Positions 31,171 to 39,321 of a DNA stretch of 64,000 nucleotides are shown here, piece by piece. Origin of the DNA: Koleobacter methoxysyntrophicus (GTDB taxonomy: Bacteria > Bacillota > Thermosediminibacteria > Koleobacterales > Koleobacteraceae). Position numbers and translations under genes: made by a program. Below the pieces are notes generated by a model, which saw only the letters and a program-made list of their open reading frames with translations, was not told the origin of the DNA and did no database searches. Where the stretch lies: positions 248,001 through 312,000 of the forward strand of contig NZ_CP059066.1 of NCBI RefSeq assembly GCF_017301615.1. Direction: 5' to 3'. How positions within the stretch are numbered: position 1 is the first letter of the stretch; each line of letters starts with the position of its first letter.

Positions 31171-33288
31171 TTATTTACTCTGTTTGATGCTACCGATTAA
31201 AAATCTATGACTTACAAAAGCATCTTGGATTATTGTATTATCAATTTTTCCCTTTAAAACCTTGGCAATGTACTCGTACTCATTCTTTATCCCTTTATCT
31301 TGTCTAAGTTTCATCTTTGTTTTCTTTATGCTTCCGTATTGACTTATCTTGATATAATTATCCATTTCGTACACCATACCGTTAGAAAATACTCTTAGCT
31401 GTTCTTTAGGATATTTTTTTGAACCCATAGATGTATATAGGATATTACCGATAGCTCCTGACGAGAATTTTAAGGTAATAATCGCGTTATCTTTTTTAGG
31501 AAAAGCATCATTTTGAGCAAATGTAATGTTTAAAGATTCGAGATTACTTCCATCTAAATACTGTATAACATCAATGAAATGGATTGCTTCTCCAATTATT
31601 CTACCACCACCAATTTTTTCATCTTGTGTCCAATGATCTTCTGGTATAAATCCAGCATTAACAATATAGTCATAAACTGCAGGTATTTTATCAGTAGATA
31701 GCTCTTTTTTAATTTTCTTTATAAGAGGTGCATGTCTTCTATTTAATCCTATGAATAATTCTCCCTTTGATGATTTATAAGTAGATTCAATTTTTTCAAG
31801 TTCTTCTATAGTTAAACACATAGGTTTTTCGCAATAAACATGTTTCCCTGCTTCTAGGGCTTCAATGATAAATTTTGCATGTGTATTATGTGGAGTTGAA
31901 ATAACAATTAAGTCAATATCTTTATCCATTATTAAATCTTTATAATTATTTGTGGTATAACCAAATTGGAACATTTCTTGTGTTTGGGCAATACCAACTC
32001 CGCCAGTTGTTGCTAAGCCTTTAAAATGATACAAGCCTGTACCTTTCATGATCGGTAGAAGAGTGTTCTTAGCAAAATTTCCAGCACCAATTAACCCAAT
32101 TGAAATTTTATCTTTTTCTATTTTTGATTTAACTTGCTTGTTAAAAATTTTGTTTACCCATTTTTCTCCATTCTGTGAATATCTTAATAATATCCCAAAA
32201 TATTTTTCATTATTTTTGTTAGTAGTAATAATTTCATAGGCTGTCTCTGCTCTATCAAAATCAATCTCGTGGGTAATCAAGTCAGAAAAATCTACTCGGT
32301 TTTCTGCAATTAACCGAATAAACTCTTCAAGATTACGACCTTCAGTAAATCTAACATATCCGATTGGATAATCAATTCCTCTTTCTTCATAGTTTGAGTC
32401 ATATCGTCCGGGTCCATAGGATCTAGCTATTGTAAAGGTTAATTCTTTTTCATAATATAAACGTCGGTCGATTTTCATCTGCGTAACACCAATCATACAA
32501 ATAATTCCACGATCTCTTACAATTGCAGCTGCTAAATCCATGGGGTCATTACTATTTGCTGCAGCTGTTATAATTACTTTATCTACACCTCGTCCTTTTG
32601 TTAATGACTTAGTAATATCTTCAGCATTTTCATCACTGACCAAAATAAATGATCTCAAATTTGTTCCACTCAAAGATTTATTTTTAATATCGTAGCCAAT
32701 AACATCACAACCATAGGCCTCTAAAATCCGTGCAGTTATATGACCTAATAGCCCTAATCCAATTACTGCTACAATTTCACCTGGTTCAACCTTTGCTTGA
32801 TGGATTCCTTGTAAAGCAATTCCACCTAATGCACATAATGCACATTGACGATAATCTTTAATTTCATTAGGAATTTTAACAATCAGATTTTTATTAACTC
32901 TATTAATTTCACTATGAAATGCTTGTCCAGCCATAGCTACTAGGTCTCCAACTTCAACTTCAGTAACGCCTCTTCCGCACTCAATAACTTTTCCTACGCC
33001 AGAATATCCCAAAGGCATTGGTTCTTTTAGTCTAGTAAAAGCAGCATCTATAGTTGTTAATATACCATCAGTAGACATTTTTTCCAAAACTTTTCTAACT
33101 TGATCAGGTCTCTCCTTTGCTTTTTGAATTAAGTTTTTACTCCCAAATGCGATCAATCCTCGTTCAGTTCCAGCACTAACTGCAGAATATAATGTTTCAA
33201 CAATAACATGGTTATCTTTTACTCTTGGTATTGGAGTATCTATTAACTTTACAGAACCATCATTAACCATTAAAAATAGCTGTTTCAC
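31171..33288 (-). CDS. Bi-domain oxidoreductase (zinc-type dehydrogenase plus Gfo/Idh/MocA)
   Basis: The 705-residue protein is a fusion. Residues 1-360 form a medium-chain alcohol-dehydrogenase-like domain (SAVSAGTERGLIAFGSKN, GYSGVGKVIECGRG, VAVIGLGLLGHITARILEAY). Residues 395-705 form a Gfo/Idh/MocA domain (IGLIGAGNFAKNTLLPIM, DLIVISTPHNTHAKFIIEAL, HVYCEKPMCL with EKP). Such fusions are usual in polysaccharide loci next to heparinase-like genes and are thought to modify a nucleotide sugar, though the exact step is unknown. GTG start with GAGGAGGTGG upstream. It was probably once adjacent to an intact heparinase gene whose scrap lies at 33898-34168. Confidence 0.85.
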   Translation of the reverse strand: MKQLFLMVNDGSVKLIDTPIPRVKDNHVIVETLYSAVSAGTERGLIAFGSKNLIQKAKERPDQVRKVLEKMSTDGILTTIDAAFTRLKEPMPLGYSGVGKVIECGRGVTEVEVGDLVAMAGQAFHSEINRVNKNLIVKIPNEIKDYRQCALCALGGIALQGIHQAKVEPGEIVAVIGLGLLGHITARILEAYGCDVIGYDIKNKSLSGTNLRSFILVSDENAEDITKSLTKGRGVDKVIITAAANSNDPMDLAAAIVRDRGIICMIGVTQMKIDRRLYYEKELTFTIARSYGPGRYDSNYEERGIDYPIGYVRFTEGRNLEEFIRLIAENRVDFSDLITHEIDFDRAETAYEIITTNKNNEKYFGILLRYSQNGEKWVNKIFNKQVKSKIEKDKISIGLIGAGNFAKNTLLPIMKGTGLYHFKGLATTGGVGIAQTQEMFQFGYTTNNYKDLIMDKDIDLIVISTPHNTHAKFIIEALEAGKHVYCEKPMCLTIEELEKIESTYKSSKGELFIGLNRRHAPLIKKIKKELSTDKIPAVYDYIVNAGFIPEDHWTQDEKIGGGRIIGEAIHFIDVIQYLDGSNLESLNITFAQNDAFPKKDNAIITLKFSSGAIGNILYTSMGSKKYPKEQLRVFSNGMVYEMDNYIKISQYGSIKKTKMKLRQDKGIKNEYEYIAKVLKGKIDNTIIQDAFVSHRFLIGSIKQSK

Positions 33289-33430: not shown

Positions 33431-33718
33431 TCAATAGTTTACTAAGTAGTTGAAGTAGAAGTTATCGATTAGTTCATCATCGGAATAGTTCTTTAGGTGT
33501 TTTATGTATTCTAGGGATAAGGCTATGTTTACTGGAAAGTTTGGTCTCCCGGTATCGCTGTAGAGTACTGAAAAGGGCTTTTCATCTATGTTGCAGAATA
33601 CGTATTTATAGAATATGGGAGCCCATGATTTGTCTAATTTGGCGTTTATCCTAGGGTTCATCCAGTTGGTGCTTTCGAATAGTGATTTTTGAAGATGGTT
33701 AACGTTTTCCCTGAACAT
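33431..33718 (-). pseudogene. N-terminal fragment of an IS1182-type transposase
   Basis: The 95-residue frame contains NWMNPRINAKLDKSWAPIFY then KYVFCNIDEKPFSVLYSD, GRPNFPVNIALSLEYIKHL and DDELIDNFYFNYLVNY. These are the first 95 residues of IS1182/DUF772-type transposases (normally about 450-550). The catalytic domain is absent, so it is inactive. It interrupts the polysaccharide locus between two other gene scraps. Confidence 0.65.
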
Positions 33719-34252: not shown

Positions 34253-35566
34253 CTATATAGTTGCTGCAACCTCATTAAGACAAGTTTCTCTATACAGGGA
34301 TTTACTCTCTCCTAACAATATATATTTAAACCCTTTTTCTTCAACTTCTTCTCTATTTATAAAGTTTCTTGTATCAAAAAAGTACTTATTTCTCATTACT
34401 TTAGCCATGTCACTTAATGGTAGATTTTTAAAATCGTCATGATGTACAGCTAATAATATGAGATCGCTATTCTTTGCCACATCTATCAAATCTTTAGCTT
34501 GATACTTATGATTTTTCACGTAAGGGTCATACACACTAACTTCATAATCATCTCTCTCATCCATCAAATCAATTAATTCAATAATAGGACTTTCTCTCAT
34601 ATCATCTATATTAGGCTTATATGTAATTCCAAGAATAGATATTTTTTTAGTTCTTTTAATATCCTTTAATATCTCATCTATTCTATTTAGGACATGTTTT
34701 GGCATACTATCATTGGTTTTTCTTGATAATTCAATAATTTTAGCTATATCAGGATTTTTTTCTATAATAAACCATGGGTCTACCGCCAAACAATGTCCAC
34801 CAACTCCTGGCCCTGGTTGATGAATATTTACTCTTGGATGTTTATTGGCTAGTTCAATTACTTCCCATGCATTAATTCCTATATTTTCGCATATCTTTGC
34901 TAACTCATTCGCAAGTGCAATATTTACATCCCTAAAGGTGTTCTCCATCAATTTACACATCTCAGCCGTTGTTGCTGTAGTAAGAAATATTTCTCCATTA
35001 ACAAATATTTTATATAAATCACGTATTTTTTCAGCTGAAATCCTATTAATTCCACCAACAATTCTATTGTTATTAACCAATTCCCATAGTATCTTTCCCG
35101 GAAGCACTCTTTCTGGAGAATGCCCTACATATAATTCTTCCCCTATTTTAAACCCCGATTTTTCTAATATTGGAACAATTAATTTTTCTACTGTTCCAGT
35201 TGGTGAAGTAGATTCTAGTATAACTATATTCCCTTTTCTAAGATAAGGCACAATTGTTTCTGTAGCTGCAATTACATAACTCATATCGGCTTTCTTTTCT
35301 TCAGTAATTGGCGTTGGAACTGCTATAATAAATGCATCTGCCTCATGCGGCTTAGTATCAGCAATTAGATTCCCTGACCTAACAGCTGCTTGTACCATAA
35401 TATCTAAGTATGGTTCTTCAATAGTAATCTCTCCTCTGTTTAAAGCATCTACCACTTTTTCATTGACATCTACACCAATTACCTTACACCCATGGGTTGC
35501 AAACATAGCACTAGTTGGTAAACCTATATATCCTAATCCCATAACACATATTTTTTTCTTGTTCAT
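34253..35566 (-). CDS. wecC: UDP-N-acetyl-D-mannosamine dehydrogenase
   Basis: The protein of about 437 residues starts KKICVMGLGYIGLPTSAMFA (Rossmann loop GLGYIG). It contains AFIIAVPTPITEEKKADMSY, VILESTSPTGTVEKLIVPIL, HSPERVLPG, LMENTFRDVNIALANELAKI and the catalytic GPGVGGHCLAVDPWFI Cys. This is the UDP-GlcNAc/ManNAc 6-dehydrogenase group; WecC is the best match. It oxidises UDP-ManNAc to UDP-ManNAcA using NAD+. ATG 35566 is preferred (GGTGA upstream); the open frame reaches 35578. No WecB epimerase is in the window, so UDP-ManNAc must come from elsewhere. Confidence 0.88.
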   Translation of the reverse strand: MNKKKICVMGLGYIGLPTSAMFATHGCKVIGVDVNEKVVDALNRGEITIEEPYLDIMVQAAVRSGNLIADTKPHEADAFIIAVPTPITEEKKADMSYVIAATETIVPYLRKGNIVILESTSPTGTVEKLIVPILEKSGFKIGEELYVGHSPERVLPGKILWELVNNNRIVGGINRISAEKIRDLYKIFVNGEIFLTTATTAEMCKLMENTFRDVNIALANELAKICENIGINAWEVIELANKHPRVNIHQPGPGVGGHCLAVDPWFIIEKNPDIAKIIELSRKTNDSMPKHVLNRIDEILKDIKRTKKISILGITYKPNIDDMRESPIIELIDLMDERDDYEVSVYDPYVKNHKYQAKDLIDVAKNSDLILLAVHHDDFKNLPLSDMAKVMRNKYFFDTRNFINREEVEEKGFKYILLGESKSLYRETCLNEVAATI

Positions 35567-35592
35567 TATTTTCACCATCCGAGGTTCGTTAT

Positions 35593-36141
35593 TTATTTAA
35601 CTGTTTTATATGTATACTCTATTACACTTAAAAAAGCCGATGCTATTTTTTCGGTAGTATGATTTTTTTCTACATACTCTCTGCCATTTTCTCCATATTG
35701 TTTTTCCAGAGTATCTATATTTTCGTATATATGCTTTATTGTCTTTGCCAAATTTTCAGGTTCATGTGGTTTTATGGTAATTCCTGCTTTAGCTTTATCT
35801 ATTAGGCTGTCCCTTACGCTTGATGCAAAGATTATAGGTTTTTTAGCAGCCATATAGTCATAGAATTTATTCTTACTTATTCCATATTTAAACGCTTTTC
35901 TCTCCATAAGGCCGCAGAATAATATATCTGATTTTTTCAAAATAATATGTATTTTCAACAACCTTTTATAAGTATCAGTTTTTTGATATCCTGTTGTAAA
36001 TTCGATTCCATTAGAAATAACTTCCTTAAAAAGTTCTTTCAAACCTTCTTCTTCAAAAGTAAGTTTTCCTTGAGTTAATGTATCTACAAGTTCCTCGTTG
36101 CAATCAATTCCTACTACTTTTACTCCACTCTTTGCGAACAT
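35593..36141 (-). pseudogene. In-frame chimera of a UDP-sugar dehydrogenase start and a glycosyltransferase end
   Basis: Residues 1-58 (MFAKSGVKVVGIDCNEELVD..., ending YQKTDTY) are the N-terminal part of a UDP-glucose/ManNAc dehydrogenase, already lacking the GLGYIG loop; in-frame codons for CTAL continue upstream with no start. From about residue 59 (near 35967) the sequence is the C-terminal half of a GT4 glycosyltransferase (KYGISKNKFYDYMAAKKPII, ENLAKTIKHIYENIDTLEKQ). The two halves are in frame but from unrelated enzymes, so the product cannot do either job. This is the scar of a deletion that removed the end of one gene and the start of another. It sits right before wecC. Confidence 0.75.
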
Positions 36142-36193
36142 TAAAGCTGTACATCCCTTCCTTCAATCTATTTTTATTTACTATTTACTGATA

Positions 36194-38047
36194 TCAAACA
36201 TTGAGCTTTATGTCAAATGTCGCTATACATTTTTTGTCATGCATCTTGTATCTAACAGACACACAATTAATCTCATCTTTTCGCAAATAATACAAACTTC
36301 TATATGCCTTTTTTACTTCAATATTTCCCTCTGTATTAACACTACATATGATTTCCCCTTTATTATACAAATGGAATACTCCATTGTCTATTTTCACTTC
36401 ACACGGGGTATGAAAATAAAACTCGCAGTAATCTCTATCACCAATAACTTCATCTGTAATCATATAGCCATACTCAGTTTTTTCAATATTTCTGGTGTGT
36501 TTATAACCATTCTTAGAAATCATAGCACCCCAAAAACTATTCTTTGTGTATCTAACATCTCCACGTTTAGTCCAGTCAGTTACTAAAAATGGTCCTATTT
36601 TATTCATTTGCTCAATGCCAGGTAATTTTACAGTATTGTGAGCTACTGTTGACGAAAGTACCTTCCCCATTTTGCTGGCATAAGAATAAGTACCACTGTC
36701 ACAAAAAACATTTATACCTTTATGCCAGAGATCTATATGCAGTTGATCCATATGTGCTGGTCTTGATTTAAAATTTTGCAAACAACACATTATAAATCCA
36801 CCATTATGACGGAAAATATAAAAGCCCGAATCGTTAAAACTCGACGATTCCCTCTTTAAATTTGCCTCAGGAAATACTGTTTGACTCCCAAACCATAATA
36901 GTTCCTCATCATAGTCCCCGGGTGAATAAAGTCTTTTTCCTTCAATCAACGTGTACATAGTATTTAGAACTGGTCTATAATCGCCATACTCACATGATGT
37001 TACTGGGAAAATCAATGATCCATCATTAGAACCGTAATTCGGAACAAAACCATTTTCGTCTTGTACCTGATACAGCAATAAAATACTGTTTTTAATTCTT
37101 TCTTTTTCCGTGATATAAATGCCTGTTTTCTCACTAATCTTATATACACATTCAAGAATTTGCAAGGTAAATCTTTGGTAATTAAAAGAGTATTGTGTGA
37201 AACCACCATCTTTTAAAAACTGATTTCTTATCTCGGCATCCATCAATTTATAAGCTCTTTTAACTCCTGCTTTATCTTCACAACACCAAGCTCCTATAAT
37301 GAGTCCACATATTTCTGAGAAAGTATGGTTATTTCTAATACATTTATGAGCATAAAAAAAGTTAGATAATACTTTCTTATAACTTAACTCTGCAAGTTTA
37401 GTTACATTGTCTTTATCTTTTTTCGTAGTAATACCACAACTCTTAAATACTGCATAAGTCATAAGGGTATTAATCATTCGAAGAGTAGCTTCTTGCCCAC
37501 ATTTATAATTAATGCCATATGAATATAGATTATTTTTTAACCAATCTTCTAGTTGATTTGAAAAAGCCTCATAGTATTTTTTATCACCTGTTATCAAATA
37601 GGCTCTGGCAAAATAAAAGAAGTGAGCAAGTCTTGAAGCTTCCCAAACCACCTTTATATCTCCTGCTTCTGGATTAAAATCTGGGATTAGATACCACTTG
37701 ACATCTCGTCTACTTTTAACTCCAGTTAAAGGATTTAGATGCCAGTTTATTGGATTACCATAATCCAATTCGATTGAGGAAAATCCTGTAATAATACCAT
37801 TAATTGCCTTATCGGCTGTAGATACTATTTTTATTCTCTTTTCTTCCTCTAAATTCTCTAAAAATCTTTTAATTAATCCTATATCATAATCAAATAGGTC
37901 AATCCTCTTAACCGATACGTTTTTTTCAAATAATCTTTCCACTGCTGGTATTTTAGACATCAATTTTAATTTTACTGAATACAATCCTCTATTTAGTGTC
38001 CATTTCAAACCATATTCAGTTAACAATGATTTAATTATTTTTATCAT
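36194..38047 (-). CDS. Heparinase II/III-like (alginate-lyase family) protein
   Basis: The 617-residue protein has the two-part layout of the family: an N-terminal alpha/alpha toroid (KWYLIPDFNPEAGDIKVVWE, RLAHFFYFARAYLITGD, NNHTFSEICGLIIGAW) and a C-terminal beta-sandwich (GFIMCCLQNFKSRPAHMDQL, HIDLWHKGINVFCDSGTYSY, VAHNTVKLPG). The HMDQLHIDLW and AHNTV motifs hold the usual active-site His residues. Members cleave uronic-acid polysaccharides; those in assembly loci may trim or release the polymer. No signal peptide is obvious. It overlaps the upstream glycosyltransferase gene by 4 bases (ATGA). Confidence 0.82.
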   Translation of the reverse strand: MIKIIKSLLTEYGLKWTLNRGLYSVKLKLMSKIPAVERLFEKNVSVKRIDLFDYDIGLIKRFLENLEEEKRIKIVSTADKAINGIITGFSSIELDYGNPINWHLNPLTGVKSRRDVKWYLIPDFNPEAGDIKVVWEASRLAHFFYFARAYLITGDKKYYEAFSNQLEDWLKNNLYSYGINYKCGQEATLRMINTLMTYAVFKSCGITTKKDKDNVTKLAELSYKKVLSNFFYAHKCIRNNHTFSEICGLIIGAWCCEDKAGVKRAYKLMDAEIRNQFLKDGGFTQYSFNYQRFTLQILECVYKISEKTGIYITEKERIKNSILLLYQVQDENGFVPNYGSNDGSLIFPVTSCEYGDYRPVLNTMYTLIEGKRLYSPGDYDEELLWFGSQTVFPEANLKRESSSFNDSGFYIFRHNGGFIMCCLQNFKSRPAHMDQLHIDLWHKGINVFCDSGTYSYASKMGKVLSSTVAHNTVKLPGIEQMNKIGPFLVTDWTKRGDVRYTKNSFWGAMISKNGYKHTRNIEKTEYGYMITDEVIGDRDYCEFYFHTPCEVKIDNGVFHLYNKGEIICSVNTEGNIEVKKAYRSLYYLRKDEINCVSVRYKMHDKKCIATFDIKLNV

Positions 38048-39321
38048 GAAATCAAACTCCCTATTACATCAAGCATTTTTTTCGTTAATACTTTATAATC
38101 AAAATCTTTGGCTCCATTCTTTGCATTTTCACCCATCTCATTGTATTTATCTCTAGGTAATTCATAAATCTGTATGATAGCTTTAGCCAAATCATGAGGT
38201 GTATCTTTTTCCAACGAAATGCCACATTTATATTTCTCTAAGAGACAGTATCCCATTTTAACAGTAGATATAATCGGTTTTCCTGAGGCCATATATTCGA
38301 ATAATTTGTTAGAACTATTCCCTCTAGACCAATTATATTTTGTTTGTGAATAGTTTAAGATATTGACCGATGATTTACTAAGGACATAAGGTATGTATTT
38401 TTTCTCTACATAACCTTTCATTTTGACATTATTTAATCCTTCATCAATAACGCGTTGCCTTAGACTCTCTAATTGATTACCATCACCATAAATGAGAAAC
38501 TGAATATCTGTATGGTCTTTTAAAAGTTTAGCAGCATCTAGAATGTTTCCTACATTATTGATAGGACGAATAGCCCCTGTATAAACTACATTAAATTTGT
38601 CAGCAAGTAAATCTTCATCTTCTAATATCTCATTCTTGATTTGTTTATTAAATGCATTGATATCTACACCATTATTTATGTAATAACACTTCTTGAGGTC
38701 AATATCTCCCCCTTGTTCTAAGGTCCATTTTCTTTCTTTTAGGTAGTCTGTATCTCCCTCTTTCAAGAATATAAGTGCATCGGCTTTTTTATAGATCCAA
38801 TGTTCTCCTGCTATCAGCAGTTTGCCCAGAACACTACTTTCTTTTGTTTTACCAAAAGCAAAAATTGCTTCCGGCCACAAATCTCGAACCTCACAAACAC
38901 ATGGAACATTATATTTTTTTGCAATTTTAATTCCTGCAATCAGAGCTAATGGATGGGGTGAAGAAGCGTATATCAAGTCAGGTTTTCCTTCTTTTTTAGA
39001 ATATGTTTTTGTTACACTAAATAAATTCATATAATATGCCCACATATTTTTTACTCTTGCCAATGTGTTCTTGGCCGAGGATGGCGTATTTATAAAAACA
39101 AAAGGAATATTTGAATGTTCTTGAACAATATATGGAGTTTTATTTCTAATTAAATTAACGTCTGAAAAATGAAGATATGATGCAGCAAAGATTATTGTTT
39201 TGTAATTCTCATCTTTCATGTTTATGGCAAAATTATATGGTCTCGTAAAACCATTCATTGTTGGAGGTGTAGCATAATGATGAAAAACCCATATGGTTTT
39301 ACTTTTTTTATTATCCACCAT
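38044..39321 (-). CDS. GT4 glycosyltransferase, WbuB-like
   Basis: The 425-residue GT-B protein begins KTIWVFHHYATPPTMNGFTR, the start typical of WbuB-like GT4 enzymes. It shows DLIYASSPHPLALIAGIKIA, PCVCEVRDLWPEAI, NVVYTGAIRPINNVGNILDA and NWSRGNSSNKLFEYMASGKP (E-x7-E type region). WbuB-type enzymes add N-acetylfucosamine or a similar sugar. It lies between the epimerase gene (3-base gap) and the heparinase-like gene (overlap), in one operon with the initiating transferase, so it may add the second sugar. Donor not proven. Confidence 0.82.
   Translation of the reverse strand: MVDNKKSKTIWVFHHYATPPTMNGFTRPYNFAINMKDENYKTIIFAASYLHFSDVNLIRNKTPYIVQEHSNIPFVFINTPSSAKNTLARVKNMWAYYMNLFSVTKTYSKKEGKPDLIYASSPHPLALIAGIKIAKKYNVPCVCEVRDLWPEAIFAFGKTKESSVLGKLLIAGEHWIYKKADALIFLKEGDTDYLKERKWTLEQGGDIDLKKCYYINNGVDINAFNKQIKNEILEDEDLLADKFNVVYTGAIRPINNVGNILDAAKLLKDHTDIQFLIYGDGNQLESLRQRVIDEGLNNVKMKGYVEKKYIPYVLSKSSVNILNYSQTKYNWSRGNSSNKLFEYMASGKPIISTVKMGYCLLEKYKCGISLEKDTPHDLAKAIIQIYELPRDKYNEMGENAKNGAKDFDYKVLTKKMLDVIGSLIS

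What the first reader, a model, noticed from the sequence alone, without database searches (positions are those of the whole stretch)
35593..36141. In-frame chimera of two unrelated glycan genes
The open frame joins 58 residues of a UDP-sugar dehydrogenase to the C-terminal half of a GT4 glycosyltransferase. It is open and could be annotated wrongly as either. It records a recent deletion next to an intact wecC of the same dehydrogenase family and shows how the locus is being remodelled.
Basis: seen in the sequence. Interest (0 to 1): 0.5.

Follow-up and report, generated by a model that had tools for sequence, protein, structure and literature searches.

The report
Remnants of two sugar genes joined
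A short open reading frame in a bacterial surface-sugar gene cluster is the in-frame join of leftovers of two broken genes, a scar of ordinary cluster rearrangement and most likely not a working protein.

Summary
ORF 36141→35593 (- strand, 182 aa) has residues 1-58 from a WecC-like nucleotide-sugar dehydrogenase (DH1) and residues about 64-182 from the C-terminal quarter of a GT4 glycosyltransferase (GT4b). Full-length parents exist elsewhere. DH1 is the third gene of a GT4a-heparinase-DH1 module whose first two genes are intact in the window. GT4b usually sits directly upstream of wecC, which is the next gene in the window. The chimera is therefore the scar where two modules meet. The missing parts are nowhere else in the genome. 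No searched genome has a fused homologue. The fragments show no excess divergence, so the event is fairly recent. Deletion inside one locus or recombination between clusters cannot be told apart, because no sister strain is held. It is most likely a pseudogene. Such remnants are well documented in polysaccharide clusters: a correct finding, but of low interest.

The parts
35593..36141 (-). chimeric open frame, 182 aa (P0001)
35968..36150 (-). DH1 remnant: codons 14-74 of a WecC-like nucleotide-sugar dehydrogenase, 70% identical to L055 DH1; codons 17-74 lie inside the open frame
35956..35967 (-). junction filler, about four codons matching neither parent
   Evidence: alignments
35593..35955 (-). 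GT4b remnant: C-terminal 120 codons and stop of a GT4 glycosyltransferase (71% to L064 residues 303-413)
36151..36173 (-). retained DH1 ribosome-binding-site-like sequence (GGAAGGG), followed after four bases by DH1 codon 14; start codon and first 13 codons, with the GxGYxG motif, are missing
   Evidence: (sequence comparison with nine DH1 loci)
34253..35578 (-). intact wecC (UDP-N-acetylmannosamine dehydrogenase, 441 aa), usual downstream partner of GT4b, 14 nt after the GT4b remnant
   Evidence: NF008286 464 bits, cut-off 459
36194..38047 (-). intact heparinase II/III-like gene, usual upstream neighbour of DH1
38044..39321 (-). intact GT4a glycosyltransferase of the GT4a-heparinase-DH1 module

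Best explanation
The frame is a non-functional remnant at the boundary of two polysaccharide-synthesis modules. Upstream (39321-36194) lies GT4a-heparinase, which in other genomes is often followed by the dehydrogenase DH1. Downstream lies wecC, which in other genomes is usually preceded directly by GT4b. An illegitimate joining event, either an internal deletion or a junction made when one cluster recombined with another, removed DH1 from codon 75 on, anything between, and GT4b up to about codon 302: at least about 1.9 kb of coding sequence. The two stubs happened to join in frame. A separate loss of roughly 40 nt took the DH1 start codon and NAD-binding glycine motif. The intact WecC can supply the same kind of activity, so DH1 was dispensable. 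Shown: composition, breakpoints, module identity, absence of the missing parts elsewhere in the genome. Inferred: non-function, the order of the losses, redundancy with WecC.
For: GT4a-heparinase-DH1 occurs in that order in 7 of 13 DH1 loci examined (L053, L054, L055, L056, L059, L137, L138; L053 and L059 are from one genome); two more DH1 loci seen only (L058, L060) lack it, giving 7 of 15. GT4b-wecC adjacent in that order occurs in 7 of 10 GT4b loci (L061-L065, L133, L134), including those with the closest WecC (84%, 81%, 80%). DH1 homology stops sharply at Tyr58 and GT4b homology starts at residue 63/64. DH1 codons 1-13 and about 78-406 and GT4b codons 1-302 have no other copy in the complete 3.1 Mb genome beyond the paralogues WecC (45%) and GT4a (31%). 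The remnant lacks GxGYxG, the central and UDP-binding domains, the GT4 acceptor domain and the first half of the donor domain. No fused homologue was seen. An IS transposase remnant lies just past wecC.
Against: The frame is open over 182 codons and carries no more changes at conserved columns than intact homologues: GT4b part 2 of 46, intact homologues 0-7 of 44-51; DH1 part 1 of 16, intact 0-2 of 15-17. A young pseudogene predicts this, but so does a constrained protein. No strain with an uninterrupted allele was available.
Confidence: 0.9

Rival explanations
1. Sub-case A: a single deletion within one ancestral locus that held GT4a-heparinase-DH1-(x)-GT4b-wecC in full.
For: Same strand and order of both stubs; both missing parts at the junction are the inward-facing ones. 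DH1 and GT4b occur in one cluster in L066 and in one contig of the L064 genome.
Against: In both of those GT4b lies upstream of DH1, the wrong order for this deletion; 0 of 10 GT4b loci have DH1 directly upstream. The DH1 5' loss needs another event.
Confidence: 0.4
2. Sub-case B: illegitimate recombination joined two clusters directly, with the join falling inside DH1 and GT4b.
For: Within the stretches fetched, the relatives closest to the left part lack GT4b and those closest to the right part lack the GT4a-heparinase-DH1 run. WecC is nearest to G606 and L064 (84%, 80%; 55% to Halanaerobium L062) while the GT4b part is nearly as close to Halanaerobium (75%) as to G606 (76%). IS remnant nearby. 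Precedent: Salmonella group D2 cluster (PMC3715488, passages).
Against: The IS remnant is about 2 kb from the junction, not at it; no donor of near-identical sequence was found.
Confidence: 0.5
3. The ORF is a real, expressed fusion protein with a new role.
For: In frame, open, retained ribosome-binding-site-like sequence about 13 nt upstream of the ATG, no excess divergence.
Against: Both parts are less than a full domain; no homologue with the same structure. Neutral simulation leaves 22% of copies without a stop at 0.05 changes per site, so openness is weak evidence.
Confidence: 0.03
4. Assembly error.
For: None found; reads are not available.
Against: Single-contig genome, 100% complete; the missing parts are absent from the whole assembly, where a misjoin would leave them elsewhere.
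Confidence: 0.03

Closest known systems
Gene remnants and composite junctions in O-antigen clusters (Salmonella groups B1, D1, D2; PMC3715488, passages seen)
   Same: Remnants of genes lost by serial deletions; a cluster formed by recombination of two clusters, with a mobile-element remnant at the junction
   Different: Here two different remnants happen to join in frame into one open frame; no population data
WecC-type nucleotide-sugar dehydrogenase (TIGR03026, NF008286)
   Same: Residues 1-58 align with codons 17-74 at up to 69% identity
   Different: Lacks the NAD motif at the 5' end and about 330 codons at the 3' end
GT4 glycosyltransferase upstream of wecC (GT4b; Halanaerobium, Tissierella, Anaerosalibacter)
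   Same: Residues 64-177 at 61-75% identity to the seven homologues compared
   Different: Lacks about the first 302 residues

Membership tests
nucleotide-sugar dehydrogenase (PF03721/PF00984/PF03720) | NAD-binding GxGxxG motif | tested here: not met
   homology starts at codon 14 of DH1, after the motif
nucleotide-sugar dehydrogenase (PF03721/PF00984/PF03720) | central and UDP-binding domains | tested here: not met
   no PF00984 or PF03720 match in the chimera; TIGR03026 36 bits against cut-off 190
GT4 glycosyltransferase | N-terminal acceptor domain | tested here: not met
   no PF13439 or PF13579 match; only GT4b residues from about 303 on are present
GT4 glycosyltransferase | complete donor-binding C-terminal domain | tested here: not met
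   PF13692 positions 69-142 of 142 and PF00534 109-171 of 172, both under the curated cut-offs
genuine fusion protein | same two-part structure in other genomes | tested here: not met
   no single frame spanning both parts (1047 genomes on the tool's counter, repeats and own-genome searches included; 7 loci)
rearrangement scar in a polysaccharide cluster | full-length parents at corresponding positions elsewhere | tested here: met
rearrangement scar in a polysaccharide cluster | sister strain with the unbroken allele | not testable with these tools
   no other genome of the genus was returned; the class search covered 26 genomes, with one other in the family, which had no match at E 1e-6

The most novel reading that the evidence does not exclude
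The in-frame join gave birth to a small expressed protein that has been kept, for example as a binding partner of WecC or of a glycosyltransferase.
Probability: 0.03. Interest if true: 0.45.

Novelty: new member of a known kind. Interest (0 to 1): 0.12.

Why it matters
It marks where two sugar-synthesis modules were joined and warns annotators not to call the frame a dehydrogenase or a glycosyltransferase. Otherwise it is a routine trace of surface-polysaccharide cluster turnover.

Tried and rejected
The genome-contig scan listed five loci, L061-L065, as matching residues 1 to 174-180, which at first looked like conserved fusions. Reading the ORFs of L062-L065 and the alignments showed that each is a full or contig-cut GT4b followed by a separate wecC whose N-terminus resembles residues 1-45. 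Rejected as fusions. The G076 match over residues 36-177 lies inside one 418-aa GT4; the extra residues are gapped extension into that protein's own sequence.

An earlier thought that G076 (dehydrogenase directly upstream of GT4b) was the ancestral allele was dropped: its dehydrogenase is nearest the window WecC (53%), not DH1.

Direct repeats at the junction were sought: only weak, short ones, nothing that explains the joining. The phage search gave no match and the plasmid searches gave no fusion. The phylum search around the Halanaerobium genome largely repeated genomes under new handles, so the two must not be added as independent. No structure was predicted, since the argument does not rest on it. 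Two of the three paper searches gave nothing relevant in their listings; the first led to PMC3715488.

Full report
What is there. The ORF 36141→35593 on the minus strand (182 aa, ATG, stop at 35593-35595) is real. Its residues 1-55 match the NAD-binding domain of nucleotide-sugar dehydrogenases (PF03721 positions 18-73 of 187), and residues 63-141 match the end of a GT4 domain (PF13692 positions 69-142 of 142, slightly under its cut-off).

Parent 1, DH1. The closest relatives of residues 1-58 are WecC-like dehydrogenases (TIGR03026 419 bits for the L055 protein; it stays below the cut-off of the WecC equivalog model NF008286). Identity is 52-69% to nine DH1 loci. In all nine the homology ends at Tyr58, after which DH1 continues with a segment like IIAVPTPY. 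In 7 of 13 DH1 loci examined, DH1 follows GT4a and a heparinase-like gene in the order GT4a-heparinase-DH1 (two further DH1 loci, L058 and L060, show DH1 without them, so 7 of 15; L053 and L059 come from one genome). The window has exactly GT4a (38044-39321), heparinase (36194-38047), then the remnant. In L053 and L055 the gene before GT4a is also the same epimerase-like gene.

The 5' end. In the homologues a ribosome-binding-site-like sequence precedes ATG and codons 1-13 (MINIIGLGYIGLP in L055), then codon 14 (T). In the window a GAAGGAAGGG sequence like that of L053 is followed, after four bases, directly by codon 14. The start codon and the glycine-rich NAD motif are therefore lost. The size of this loss, about 40 nt, is an estimate from the L053 spacing. 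The in-frame ATG used by the ORF caller is DH1 codon 17.

Parent 2, GT4b. Residues 64-177 are 61-75% identical to the C-termini of the seven GT4b homologues. A further one, in G606, is 76% identical over residues 64-179, and L067 is more distant at 51%. In 7 of 10 GT4b loci the next gene is wecC on the same strand (L061-L065, L133, L134); in two (L052, L067) wecC is upstream; in one (L066) a heparinase gene follows. In the window wecC starts 14 nt after the remnant and is closest to the WecC of L133 (84%), L134 (81%), L064 (80%) and L063 (72%), all of them GT4b-wecC pairs. So wecC belongs with the GT4b stub, not with the DH1 stub.

Missing parts. A search of the single-contig own genome with full DH1 (E up to 1) gave 3 matches: WecC, the remnant (codons 14-77) and one chance-level match. 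Full GT4b gave 5: the remnant (residues 303-414), GT4a at 31% and three weak ones. The lost parts were not moved elsewhere.

Is it a true fusion? Every genome search listed the two halves in separate genes: 61 genomes; 398; 26; 7; 3; 249; 298, largely the genomes again. These sets overlap. The species-level scan gave 7 loci, all with separate genes. Plasmids gave 4 records, all matching the GT4 part only; phages none.

Age and constraint. At columns invariant in all other sequences the window departs at 2 of 46 (GT4b part) and 1 of 16 (DH1 part). The homologues depart at 0-7 of 44-51 and 0-2 of 15-17. The same measure for the intact window genes gave WecC 1 of 130 and heparinase 7 of 198. One of the two GT4b changes is next to the junction (P to H). 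There is no excess decay. A neutral simulation shows the frame would stay stop-free in 22% of cases at 0.05 changes per site and 6.5% at 0.10, so the open frame says only that the event is not old.

Mechanism. Both stubs face the junction with their broken ends, so a joining event lost at least about 330 codons of DH1 and 302 of GT4b. Whether both full genes once stood in this order is unknown. In L066 and in the L064 genome the two genes share a cluster or contig, but with GT4b upstream of DH1. Recombination between two clusters is at least as likely. A transposase remnant (33431-33718) with 93% identical copies elsewhere in the genome lies past wecC, but about 2 kb from the junction.

Known context. 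In Salmonella O-antigen clusters, wzy remnants left by serial deletions, and the D2 cluster made by recombination of D1 and E with a mobile-element remnant at the junction, are described (PMC3715488, passages only). The present case is the same kind of thing in another polysaccharide cluster. The in-frame join is a one-in-three coincidence (inference).

Verdict. Observation confirmed; interpretation right that it is a scar, unproven that it is one deletion. A pseudogene of low interest.

Noticed in passing
window 33431-33718 (-): N-terminal remnant (95 aa) of an IS5-like transposase (DUF772) just past wecC; a 541-aa frame of the same element stands at L146:2110-3735 and a split copy (165 + 356 aa) in L147.
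   Followed up: partly
window 31171-33288 (-): 705-aa two-domain oxidoreductase: zinc-type alcohol dehydrogenase followed by a Gfo/Idh/MocA domain.
   Followed up: no
L064:11711-13024: A second nucleotide-sugar dehydrogenase (36% to the window WecC) directly follows wecC in Anaerosalibacter; L133 has a similar pair.
   Followed up: no
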